49,535 nucleotides of DNA, taken from an uncultured Clostridia bacterium (GTDB taxonomy: Bacteria; Bacillota; Clostridia; Christensenellales; Borkfalkiaceae). Location of the stretch: NCBI GenBank assembly GCA_947627955.1, contig CANQXZ010000006.1:1-49535 (forward strand). The letters run 5' to 3'. Numbering within the stretch: the first letter of the stretch is position 1; every line of letters begins with the position of its first letter. Shown here in pieces: positions 10,147 through 12,126 of the stretch. The notes beneath the pieces were generated by a model. The model saw only the letters and a program-made list of their open reading frames with translations, was not told the DNA's origin and did not search any database. The position numbers and the translations under genes were made by a program.

Positions 10147-10184
10147 AAAAACGGCGCCCGCGGAATGCTCCGCGGGCGCTTTAT
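10145..10184. terminator. Bidirectional terminator between the MocR gene and the peptide operon
   Basis: An 11-bp stem GCGCCCGCGGA with loop ATGC is flanked by TTTATT on the plus side and by seven A (seven T on the minus strand). It ends the convergent transcripts from both sides; the minus-strand version is the stronger. Confidence 0.85.
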
Positions 10185-10218: not shown

Positions 10219-10311
10219 TTATCTCGCGCAGTTCAACGCAACGTACGAAAGGGGAGAAACCCCGTAATATTCATTTGTCTCTTCCATTTCGTTCAATTCG
10301 AAATATAACAT
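10219..10311 (-). CDS. 30-residue peptide, paralogue 2
   Basis: A 30-codon gene with an AAGGAGG ribosome site 7 bases before its ATG. The peptide has an acidic N-terminal half (MLYFELNEMEETNEYY) and ends in GVSPLSYVALNCAR. The last 14 residues match the sister peptide upstream in the same transcript at all but one position (Ala for Thr), whereas the first halves share mainly MLY and acidic character. There is no signal peptide, no membrane segment and a single cysteine three residues from the end. Conserved length, duplicate ribosome sites and conserved C-terminus say it is translated. Function unknown: a modified peptide, a signal or a protein-binding peptide are all possible. Confidence 0.8.
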   Translation of the reverse strand: MLYFELNEMEETNEYYGVSPLSYVALNCAR

Positions 10312-10384
10312 TGCAAATACCTCCTTATAAAAGTATTTTACCTCATGTTCTCTTGTGCTTTGCCGCCGATCGCGCGCGGATAAG

Positions 10385-10477
10385 TTATCTCGCGCAGTTG
10401 AGGGTGACGTAGGAAAGGGGCGACACCCCATAGATATCATTGGCTTCTTCGATTTTGCCGAGGTCATCGTACAACAT
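10385..10477 (-). CDS. 30-residue peptide, paralogue 1
   Basis: This is the promoter-proximal of the two twin genes. It too has 30 codons and an AAGGAGG site, 7 bases before the ATG. The peptide starts MLYDDLGKIEEANDIY and ends GVSPLSYVTLNCAR. It is transcribed from a strong promoter about 60 bases upstream, with the second copy 73 bases downstream and a strong terminator after it. No modifying enzyme, transporter or receptor gene is adjacent; neighbours are a MocR regulator and an M23 protein. I do not recognise the family. Confidence 0.8.
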   Translation of the reverse strand: MLYDDLGKIEEANDIYGVSPLSYVTLNCAR

Positions 10478-10508
10478 TGTATTTACCTCCTTGAAATGTA
10501 TTTTAAGA

Positions 10509-10523
10509 GAGAGCTTGCCGCTC
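10509..10523 (-). promoter_or_regulatory. Small leader hairpin of the peptide operon
   Basis: On the transcript, AGAGC and GCTCT pair around a 5-base GGCAA loop about 10 bases after the expected transcription start. It may stabilise the short mRNA. Confidence 0.4.
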
Positions 10524-10542
10524 TTTTCTTAATTGCAGTTGC

Positions 10543-10571
10543 AGTATAGCACCGAATTTTTTGTTAGTCAA
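10543..10571 (-). promoter_or_regulatory. Strong promoter of the twin-peptide operon
   Basis: Read on the minus strand: TTGACT, 17 bases, TATACT. Directly upstream of the -35 are phased runs of A and T like an UP element, so high expression is expected. Confidence 0.85.
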
Positions 10572-10780
10572 TAACAATTTCAAATTTTTTAAAAATTTTA
10601 TTTATGTTATTTTACAACATTATTTTATGATAATTTCGATAATTTATGTTAACTTAACAAAATAAAAAATTTTTTAGTGAAATAACTTTTCAAAGTTCAC
10701 AAAAATTTATGTTTTTTAACAACAAAGTTCACATTTTTGTTCGGCAGTGCAAAAACTGTTGAAAAAAGCGGTAAAAATAT
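10560..10780. promoter_or_regulatory. AT-rich regulatory block with repeated CAAAGTTCACA
   Basis: About 220 bases of extreme AT content stand in otherwise GC-rich DNA and contain no ORF of note. CAAAGTTCACA occurs twice, at 10691 and 10723, 32 bases (about three helical turns) apart. This is the pattern of a cooperative binding site upstream of the peptide promoter. No binding protein can be named. Confidence 0.5.
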
Positions 10781-10892: not shown

Positions 10893-11534
10893 TTACTTGG
10901 GGTCTATTTCGAGGTAGTCCTCGGGGTCGACGTTCACGCCGTCCTTGAACACCTCGAAGTGCAGGTGGTCGCCGTCGGCGTTTTCAATGCCCGTGGCGGC
11001 GGCAATGGCGCCTATCACCTGTCCGCGGGTCACAGCCGCGCCCGCAACGAGGCTTTCCGCGGGCTCGATAAATTTATACACGGTGGTCACTCCGCCCGCA
11101 TGCTCGATGGTGACGGTCGCATAGACGAGCTTGTCGTCTTTCTCTATGGAGAGCACCTTGCCGTCCACCGCGGCGAGCACTTCCGTGCCCGCGGGCGCGC
11201 CGAAGTCTATCGCCTGATGGAGATAGTACTTGTCGAGCGTCTTGTTGTGGGCGAACACGTGCGCGCAGATCACGTTCACGTCCTTTACGGGCGAGATGAA
11301 TTCGTATTGGGAGGAGGTATCGGCTCCGGGGTCGTCGTCGCCGCTATCGGGAGGCTCCTGCTGCCCGCCGCCTTCAACCGTTCCGCTGTCCAAAGTCATA
11401 TTCCGTCCGTTGCCGTTTACCGCGAATATAACCCCGACGGTTATCGCGGCGACAATAAGCAGGCATGCGGCAAGAATAAGCCAGAACAACAGCTTCTTCT
11501 TTCTTGTGGGTTTTGAATTTGCGTTGTCTTTCAT
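10893..11534 (-). CDS. Membrane-anchored M23 (LytM) peptidase-like protein, SpoIIQ-like
   Basis: A 213-residue protein: a basic N-terminus, one membrane segment (about residues 15-39), an acidic Gly/Pro/Asp linker (47-75) and an M23 domain. The zinc ligands are present: His106 and Asp110 in LHQAIDFG, and His190/His192 in HLHFEV. M23 enzymes cut peptide bridges in peptidoglycan outside the cell. Size and layout (one TM plus a single M23 domain) resemble SpoIIQ, the forespore protein that joins SpoIIIAH in the engulfment channel; Clostridial SpoIIQ usually keeps the metal ligands. The next upstream gene lies 41 bases away on the same strand, so they are probably co-transcribed. Confidence 0.85.
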   Translation of the reverse strand: MKDNANSKPTRKKKLLFWLILAACLLIVAAITVGVIFAVNGNGRNMTLDSGTVEGGGQQEPPDSGDDDPGADTSSQYEFISPVKDVNVICAHVFAHNKTLDKYYLHQAIDFGAPAGTEVLAAVDGKVLSIEKDDKLVYATVTIEHAGGVTTVYKFIEPAESLVAGAAVTRGQVIGAIAAATGIENADGDHLHFEVFKDGVNVDPEDYLEIDPK

Positions 11535-11575: not shown

Positions 11576-11992
11576 TCAGTAGCCGCCGAAAATTATGGGC
11601 GACGCCACTTTTGCCACATTGCCCCGCACGCAGACGTGCAGATTTATCGTTTCGCCGTATAAGTTCACCGAATAGGGCAAATCGGCGGAGCAGTAGTAGT
11701 TCACCGAGTCGGAAAGCGTTTCCGTGAACATCACTTTGCCGTTTACCTTTTCAAGATAGCTTCCGAGGTCGAAATTTTCATATTCCGCGCTTTCCCCGCA
11801 CACGTCTTTCAGGAGCAGTTTTTCGGCTTCGGGATTGAAAGCCGCCACAACTTCCCTGCAATCAGCCGAGCTTGTCCCGCAGTAAAAGGTGTAGTTTTTG
11901 CCGCCCGAGAAGCATAAGCGGGAGGGGAATACGGAAAAAGCCGCCAATACGACAGAAGCGAACAGAGCCGTGATTATAAGAGCTATCTTCAT
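11576..11992 (-). CDS. Secreted or membrane-anchored hypothetical protein
   Basis: A 138-residue protein with an N-terminal hydrophobic segment (MKIALIITALFASVVLAAFS) that should act as signal peptide or anchor. The extracytoplasmic part has four or five cysteines and ends PIIFGGY. I do not recognise the family. The start was taken at the ATG preceded by GGGGAGGTG; an upstream in-frame ATG lacks a ribosome site. It is the first gene of a two-gene transcript with the SpoIIQ-like M23 protein, so a role at the cell envelope or in sporulation is possible (inference). Confidence 0.7.
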   Translation of the reverse strand: MKIALIITALFASVVLAAFSVFPSRLCFSGGKNYTFYCGTSSADCREVVAAFNPEAEKLLLKDVCGESAEYENFDLGSYLEKVNGKVMFTETLSDSVNYYCSADLPYSVNLYGETINLHVCVRGNVAKVASPIIFGGY

Positions 11993-12126
11993 TTTCACCT
12001 CCCCGGAAGGTTTCCATTCTGTTATTGCCACTGCCGCGGATATTAAACGTGGGCGGAGCGAAAAAATTTTAAAAGATCCCTTTCAGCGCGCGCGTTCCTT
12101 AAATTTTAAAGGAAGCCCCAAACTTC

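What the first reader, a model, noticed from the sequence alone, without database searches (positions are those of the whole stretch)
10219..10571. Twin 30-residue peptide genes under a very strong promoter
Two tandem minus-strand genes, each 30 codons with its own AAGGAGG site, encode peptides sharing GVSPLSYV(A/T)LNCAR at the C-terminus and differing in the acidic N-terminal half. They have a TTGACT-17-TATACT promoter with an AT-rich upstream block and a strong terminator. Conserving the C-terminus and varying the N-terminus is the reverse of what duplicated RiPP precursors usually show, so the tail is probably the working part: a bound ligand, a signal or a modification target. No enzyme or exporter is adjacent. 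This is my strongest candidate for an undescribed system.
Basis: partly seen in the sequence, partly recalled or inferred. Interest (0 to 1): 0.85.

Follow-up and report, generated by a model that had tools for sequence, protein, structure and literature searches.

The report
Genus-only promoter with swapped peptide genes
The two tiny peptide genes are real, and they belong to an unnamed family found only in one genus of gut bacteria (Candidatus Coproplasma), where a nearly unchanging strong switch drives short, interchangeable sets of roughly 30-residue peptides whose job is unknown.

Summary
Observation confirmed, and the finding is larger than reported. Both 30-codon ORFs exist. Their family (117 of 118 detected copies start with ATG) occurs in 72 of 93 genomes of the genus, is absent from 386 other genomes of the order, and is the only thing hit by a degenerate DNA pattern across 84,980 genomes. 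Purifying selection on the protein is clear (pN/pS 0.19-0.28). The N-terminus is conserved too (IY[DE]xLNELDE); both tyrosines are invariant in 110 of 110 peptides. The promoter is the striking part: a gapless ~115-bp block with two TGTTA-N5-TAACA palindromes 43 bp apart, found in 81 of 93 genus genomes (usually once) and in 0 of 212 other genomes of the family. Behind it lie 1-6 SD-led ORFs of many unrelated classes; 'lacking' genomes often carry other peptides, or an empty site, at the same place. Payload changes at least 8 times on a gene tree. No Pfam, NCBIfam, PHROG, PADLOC, PDB or Rfam match. Function is inferred only: most likely an accessory, regulated locus for short partner-binding effector peptides. 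Membrane-active bacteriocin/PSM, RiPP, pheromone and arrest-peptide readings each fail or lack a defining feature.

The parts
10647..10659 (-). Third TTAACA-type half-site (TGTTAAGTTAACA), about 42 bp upstream of O1
   Evidence: Conserved right half in gapless alignment of 78 promoter regions
10605..10619 (-). Operator O1, TGTTG-TAAAA-TAACA (consensus TGTTA-N5-TAACA)
   Evidence: 71 of 78 promoters within 1 mismatch at this exact offset, shuffled expectation 0.02
10562..10576 (-). Operator O2, TGTTATTGACTAACA, overlapping the -35 hexamer, 43 bp from O1
   Evidence: 74 of 78 promoters within 1 mismatch; exact in window
10566..10571 (-). -35 hexamer TTGACT
10543..10548 (-). -10 hexamer TATACT with TG extension, 17-bp spacer
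10503..10532 (-). Stem-loop at the 5' end of the mRNA
   Evidence: Perfect stem of 5 or more pairs at this place in 56 of 81 mRNAs vs 7.2 in shuffles (max 17) and 9 at a slid position; stem sequences vary while pairing is kept
10486..10492 (-). Shine-Dalgarno AAGGAGG of ORF1
10385..10477 (-). ORF1, 30 aa, MLYDDLGKIEEANDIYGVSPLSYVTLNCAR (class A)
10320..10326 (-). Shine-Dalgarno AAGGAGG of ORF2
10219..10311 (-). ORF2, 30 aa, MLYFELNEMEETNEYYGVSPLSYVALNCAR (class A)
10154..10179 (-). Intrinsic terminator (11-pair stem, then T run)

Best explanation
Shown by sequence: an accessory expression site confined to Candidatus Coproplasma. A very strong promoter with phased palindromic operators and a 5' mRNA stem-loop drives a short polycistronic message of leaderless peptides of about 30 residues, each with its own strong ribosome-binding site; promoter and leader stay nearly constant while the peptide classes are gained, lost and exchanged. 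Inferred: a dimeric regulator binding TGTTA-N5-TAACA at O2 (over the -35) and O1 (43 bp, about four helical turns away) represses or gates the promoter; when released, peptides are made in large amounts. Each peptide is a two-helix unit (aromatic-headed acidic helix, loop, hydrophobic-basic tail) that binds a specific protein partner through conserved residues (both Tyr and PLSYVxLxCAR in class A), as a small inhibitor or effector. Turnover of payload suggests that the partners belong to something that changes, such as competitors, phages or hosts. Whether the peptides act inside or outside the cell is not known.
For: Coding: pN/pS 0.19 (162 pairs) and 0.28 (46 disjoint pairs); codon-position differences 183/146/477. 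Genus-wide and genus-only: 72/93 vs 0 credible of 386 in the order, with an E-value gap from 1e-11 to 1e-3; 43 of 43 hits among 84,980 genomes are contigs of this genus; none in viral contigs, phages or plasmids. Promoter single-locus and genus-only: 81/93, reversed control essentially 0, and 0 of 212 in sister genera. Operators O1/O2. SD-led ORFs 132 forward vs 4 reverse. Payload exchange: other classes behind the same promoter, at least 8 changes forced on the tree. Dispensable: SpoIIQ-like gene directly followed by PdxR with no array in G081 and G082. Sister genera have no array at the site (1 SD-led small ORF forward, 1 reverse in 29 loci). Shared two-helix prediction in classes A and C. 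Specific invariant residues rather than a generic amphipathic pattern.
Against: No partner, regulator, exporter or immunity gene identified. AlphaFold confidence is moderate (pLDDT 72-74, pTM 0.32-0.36), so the two-helix unit is a weak inference. Profile comparison of classes A and C does not show homology. Low pN/pS within class A is not what an arms race alone predicts. 'noA' genomes include incomplete assemblies, so the count of payload changes is approximate. No expression data.
Confidence: 0.4

Rival explanations
1. Leaderless membrane-active peptides (multi-peptide leaderless bacteriocin or phenol-soluble-modulin-like): exported without a leader, they permeabilise competitors.
For: Tandem leaderless ORFs with strong SDs and exchange of payload under constant control, as in bacteriocin loci (blp: PMC4860687; leaderless bacteriocins: PMC9602277). 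Class L peptides (MKLIKYLRYVHSLMTPAKTLKK and relatives) are short and cationic, +4 to +6.
Against: Class A is acidic (mean charge -3.7). Helical amphipathicity is no better than shuffles for class A and nearly all other classes (class F is the exception). No exporter or immunity gene adjacent. blp bacteriocin genes mostly show higher dN/dS (values of 0.36-2.6 among those shown; PMC4860687) than 0.19-0.28 here.
Confidence: 0.17
2. RiPP precursors: the N-terminal IYxxLNELDE helix is a recognition leader and the conserved tail is a core modified by an enzyme encoded elsewhere.
For: Two-block conservation; small cofactor-type RiPP precursors such as mycofactocin's MftA also have a functional C-terminal tail (general knowledge; literature entry PMC7491314 found).
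Against: No maturase or transporter adjacent at the locations examined. The tail is not shared among payload classes, and Cys is mostly missing outside class A. A common remote enzyme would have to accept unrelated tails.
Confidence: 0.13
3. Secreted pheromones for cell-cell signalling.
For: Short, species-variable, under dedicated control with a promoter built for high output.
Against: No receptor, kinase or protease recognised adjacent in the window; up to 6 different peptides from one message (L070); no hydrophobic export segment; the same promoter would carry unrelated signals in sister species.
Confidence: 0.1
4. Cellular regulators tied to sporulation or vitamin B6, judged by the neighbouring SpoIIQ-like M23 gene and PdxR-like MocR gene.
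For: Conserved neighbours c0, SpoIIQ-like and PdxR in many genomes; two arrays lie beside a pyridoxamine-kinase-like ORF (L059, L081; assignment from general knowledge, not scanned).
Against: The array with its promoter sits in other neighbourhoods in several clades; own promoter and terminators on both sides; the SpoIIQ-like gene persists in sister genera without the array.
Confidence: 0.12
5. Leader or arrest peptides, or a regulatory RNA with incidental ORFs.
For: Conserved C-terminus up to the stop codon and a conserved 5' stem-loop are seen in arrest peptides and regulatory RNAs (general knowledge).
Against: No gene downstream to regulate (a terminator follows); amino-acid-level purifying selection across the copies; peptide classes exchanged while the RNA leader stays; no Rfam match above gathering score.
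Confidence: 0.05

Closest known systems
Pneumococcal blp bacteriocin locus (PMC4860687)
   Same: Conserved regulatory part with variable small-peptide payload; several peptides per operon; accessory.
   Different: blp peptides have double-glycine leaders, exporters and immunity genes next to them and a two-component regulator; none of these is adjacent here, and pN/pS is lower here.
Leaderless multi-peptide bacteriocins, e.g. bacins A1-A4 (PMC9602277)
   Same: Tandem ORFs without leader, expected to start with formyl-Met.
   Different: The class A peptides here are acidic, show no unusual amphipathicity, have conserved single residues and no neighbouring immunity or export gene.
Phenol-soluble modulins of staphylococci (PMC10941976)
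   Same: Short leaderless peptides from strong regulated promoters, multiple copies (partly general knowledge).
   Different: No dedicated ABC exporter known here, acidic class A, weak amphipathicity, no sequence relation found in any library.
Cofactor-type RiPP precursors (mycofactocin MftA type; general knowledge, PMC7491314 as literature entry)
   Same: About 30 residues, functional C-terminal tail.
   Different: No maturase cluster; tandem copies; other payload classes with unrelated tails.
Taxonomically restricted small bacterial proteins (smORF surveys, e.g. PMC13376575)
   Same: Unannotated short proteins of gut bacteria restricted to one lineage.
   Different: Here a genus-wide, single-locus promoter with phased operators is the constant and the peptides are the variable.

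Membership tests
Leaderless bacteriocin / PSM-like | No N-terminal leader or signal peptide, small ORF in tandem with strong SD | tested here: met
Leaderless bacteriocin / PSM-like | Amphipathic helix, usually cationic | tested here: not met
   Class A charge -3.7; max hydrophobic moment within shuffles. Class L cationic, moment not significant
Leaderless bacteriocin / PSM-like | Adjacent immunity or export gene | tested here: not met
   Neighbours in the window are housekeeping genes, SpoIIQ-like M23 and PdxR, with the same order in many relatives; an unlinked exporter was not tested
Leaderless bacteriocin / PSM-like | Kills or lyses target cells | not testable with these tools
   Needs peptides and assays
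RiPP precursor | Modification enzyme linked to the precursor | tested here: not met
   None adjacent in the window; conserved neighbours in relatives are the same genes; unlinked enzyme not tested
RiPP precursor | Post-translational modification of the core | not testable with these tools
   Needs mass spectrometry
Double-glycine class II bacteriocin (blp type) | Double-glycine leader and C39 exporter | tested here: not met
   No double-glycine leader seen in the ORFs listed; no exporter adjacent in the window
Arrest/leader peptide | Regulated gene directly downstream in the same transcript | tested here: not met
   Terminator after the array, next gene convergent
Any family in Pfam, NCBIfam, PHROGs, PADLOC, PDB sequences, Rfam | Significant profile match | tested here: not met
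   only sub-threshold hits in one or two members
Type I toxin (Hok/Fst type) | Hydrophobic membrane-spanning segment | tested here: not met
   Hydrophobic C-terminal stretch only about 11 residues in an acidic peptide; antisense RNA not tested

The most novel reading that the evidence does not exclude
A new kind of accessory locus: a genus-specific 'peptide expression site' in which a fixed promoter with phased operators and a fixed mRNA leader hosts interchangeable cassettes of leaderless, partner-binding mini-proteins that arose within one genus and diversified into a dozen or so classes without detectable relation to each other.
Probability: 0.4. Interest if true: 0.85.

Novelty: categorically new. 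Interest (0 to 1): 0.72.

Why it matters
It is a complete gene system that is easy to overlook: present in most species of a gut genus, absent from the family libraries searched, with products about 30 residues long. The reversal of the usual pattern (promoter constant, proteins exchanged) gives a handle to find such loci elsewhere, by searching for conserved single-locus promoters rather than proteins. It also offers a natural case for how tiny proteins arise and are replaced within one genus, with empty sites in sister lineages and sister genera for comparison.

Tried and rejected
Operator TGTTA-N5-TAACA alone has 3 sites in the own genome against 6 for the reversed control, so it does not point to a regulon or regulator. 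PdxR as the regulator: no such site in its own upstream region, and arrays occur away from PdxR. Known operators with similar half-sites (Rex, GlnR/TnrA) have different spacing (general knowledge). Excess of contig ends near arrays (11 within 500 bp vs 4.0 expected) hints at strain-level variability or assembly trouble, not pursued. hhalign of class A against class C not significant. Fold search skipped: pTM 0.32 for 30 residues would give meaningless matches. Sub-threshold hits (HokA E=0.15, Halocidin E=0.031, JetB E=0.023, each in 1-2 members) treated as chance.

Full report
Observation. The two minus-strand ORFs are at 10477-10385 and 10311-10219, each 30 codons after an AAGGAGG site. They are 70% identical. 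The promoter TTGACT-17-TATACT with TG extension and the GC-rich terminator are present. Neighbours: upstream, a SpoIIQ-like M23 protein (10893-11534), an unassigned 151-aa protein (11576-12031), then YicC, guanylate kinase, RNA polymerase omega-type subunit; downstream and convergent, a PdxR-like MocR regulator, then isocitrate dehydrogenase, D-Ala-D-Ala ligase and a Mur ligase. No recognised modification enzyme, exporter or immunity gene adjoins.

A real protein family. A tblastn-type search found homologues in 69 genomes, all of the same genus. After fetching the loci, an iterated HMM gave 118 copies, 110 of them different and complete. Consensus: MxIY[DE]xLNELDE-(acidic)-YGVSPLSYV[VA]L[ND]C[AG]R-stop. 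The Tyr of each block is invariant in 110 of 110; Cys in 103. So both ends are conserved, not only the tail. Nearest-pair tests give pN/pS 0.28 over 46 disjoint pairs (0.19 over 162 pairs at 75% identity or more) and 477 of 806 differences at third codon positions: these are selected as proteins. In genomes of the genus the profile hits 72 of 93 credibly; in 386 other genomes of the order nothing below E=1e-3 appears, against about 1e-11 or better for full-length members. Viral contigs, phages and plasmids gave none.

The promoter is the constant part. Aligning 78 promoter regions needs no gap over more than 110 bp. It contains two TGTTA-N5-TAACA palindromes: O2 over the -35 box (74 of 78 within one mismatch) and O1 43 bp upstream (71 of 78; shuffled expectation 0.02; other offsets score at most once). 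A further TTAACA half-site lies about 42 bp beyond O1. The spacing is about four helical turns, as expected for cooperative binding of one protein (inference). The core pattern occurs in 81 of 93 genus genomes at up to two mismatches, mostly once per genome, with essentially no hit for the reversed control, and in none of 212 genomes from other genera of the family at up to one mismatch. Right after the expected start of the mRNA a stem-loop is kept while its sequence varies (CAGG/CCTG, CGGG/CCCG, CAAG/CTTG, CAGC/GCTG): 56 of 81 against 7.2 in shuffles and 9 at a slid position. This looks built for abundant, long-lived message (inference).

The payload is the variable part. Behind about 81 promoters there are 132 SD-led ORFs of 19-50 codons on the transcribed strand and 4 on the other. 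Ninety-nine are class A, the finding's family. The others, together with ORFs with a slightly weaker SD, fall into about a dozen sets sorted by eye, without sequence relation detected here: B (MIFNELL...LPLVYLALTNAR), C (MFIAKLLGNMYENIERRC...LDLKTTARFYLALSNI), D (MNNIIKNFLFSMNMATWSAQGS...), E (MNMYANLTQTCVAHCKNYC...), F, G, H, I (MKINFEKLS...FPLFSFFLNSAR), J, K, L (MKLIKYLRYVHSLMTPAKTLKK) and M. Classes B, H, I and K resemble class A weakly and could be distant relatives (E 0.01-0.5). Most share a scheme: aromatic residue at positions 2-5 (97% of non-A peptides, 51% in shuffles), hydrophilic middle, hydrophobic C-terminal third and a basic residue near the end (72% vs 45%). Genomes that 'lack' class A often have other classes behind the same promoter at the same site: G072, G073, G075 class I; G011 and G066 class L; G017 class D. 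Two near-complete genomes, G081 and G082, have an empty site, with the SpoIIQ-like gene followed directly by PdxR. On a tree of the SpoIIQ-like protein, presence of class A changes at least 8 times on well-supported branches; this count is approximate because some assemblies are incomplete. In 29 loci from 15 sister genera the site holds no array (one SD-led small ORF forward, one reverse). Profiles for classes C and D also find nothing credible outside the genus; the sample for class C happened to include no class-C genome, so that search had no positive control.

Structure and chemistry. AlphaFold predicts helix 2-12, loop, helix 20-25 for class A and helix 2-19, loop, helix 25-37 for class C, at moderate confidence. 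Helical amphipathicity is not above shuffles for class A. Class A is acidic (mean -3.7), while classes C, D and L are cationic. Conservation of individual residues rather than of amphipathic pattern fits binding to a specific partner better than membrane disruption (inference).

What it is and how it may work. Established: a genus-confined, essentially single-locus, dispensable, strongly and probably repressibly controlled site coding for leaderless mini-proteins, whose classes turn over while the control region stays fixed. Inferred: the peptides are small effectors binding partners that themselves change over time. Confidence is about 0.95 for the anatomy and about 0.4 for the functional reading. 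Inside versus outside the cell cannot be decided from sequence.

Comparison with known systems. The blp locus of pneumococci has the same overall logic (constant control, changing peptides; PMC4860687) but with leaders, exporters and immunity genes that are missing here. Leaderless bacteriocins (PMC9602277) and PSMs (PMC10941976) share the absence of a leader but differ in charge, amphipathicity and neighbours. No library searched contains the family. Six papers in the held library mention Coproplasma; by title and abstract none concerns these peptides, though none was read in full. 'Categorically new' is chosen because no known kind's defining features were met; it is a statement about distance from known kinds, not about proven function.

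Noticed in passing
G000:C15:33184-33217 (L239 3185-3218, outside the window): A second copy of the promoter in the same genome drives MIYELFGEMEELDGKSGEKNFTCAFLNAFLRTM (class H), between a LacI-type regulator gene and a 5S rRNA/tRNA region; the same class-H peptide exists behind the promoter in G006, G013, G016 and G065.
   Followed up: partly
L174 (G081) and L180 (G082): Empty sites: the SpoIIQ-like gene is followed directly by the PdxR gene with no promoter block and no small-ORF array.
   Followed up: partly
L059 and L081: Arrays moved to a place beside a pyridoxamine-kinase-like ORF, while elsewhere the array neighbours PdxR; a possible vitamin B6 link or coincidence.
   Followed up: no
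window 11576-12031 (-): Conserved 139-151 aa protein with an N-terminal hydrophobic segment and no Pfam match, usually upstream of the SpoIIQ-like gene.
   Followed up: no
arrays in 69 genomes: Arrays lie near contig ends more often than contig length predicts (11 within 500 bp vs 4.0 expected), which could reflect within-species variability.
   Followed up: partly
L070, 70-1000 bases downstream of its promoter: Three tandem class E peptides with 2-3 Cys each (e.g. MNMYANLTQTCVAHCKNYCEQFNGRRFIEG) precede two class A peptides and one class F peptide: six SD-led ORFs behind one promoter.
   Followed up: no
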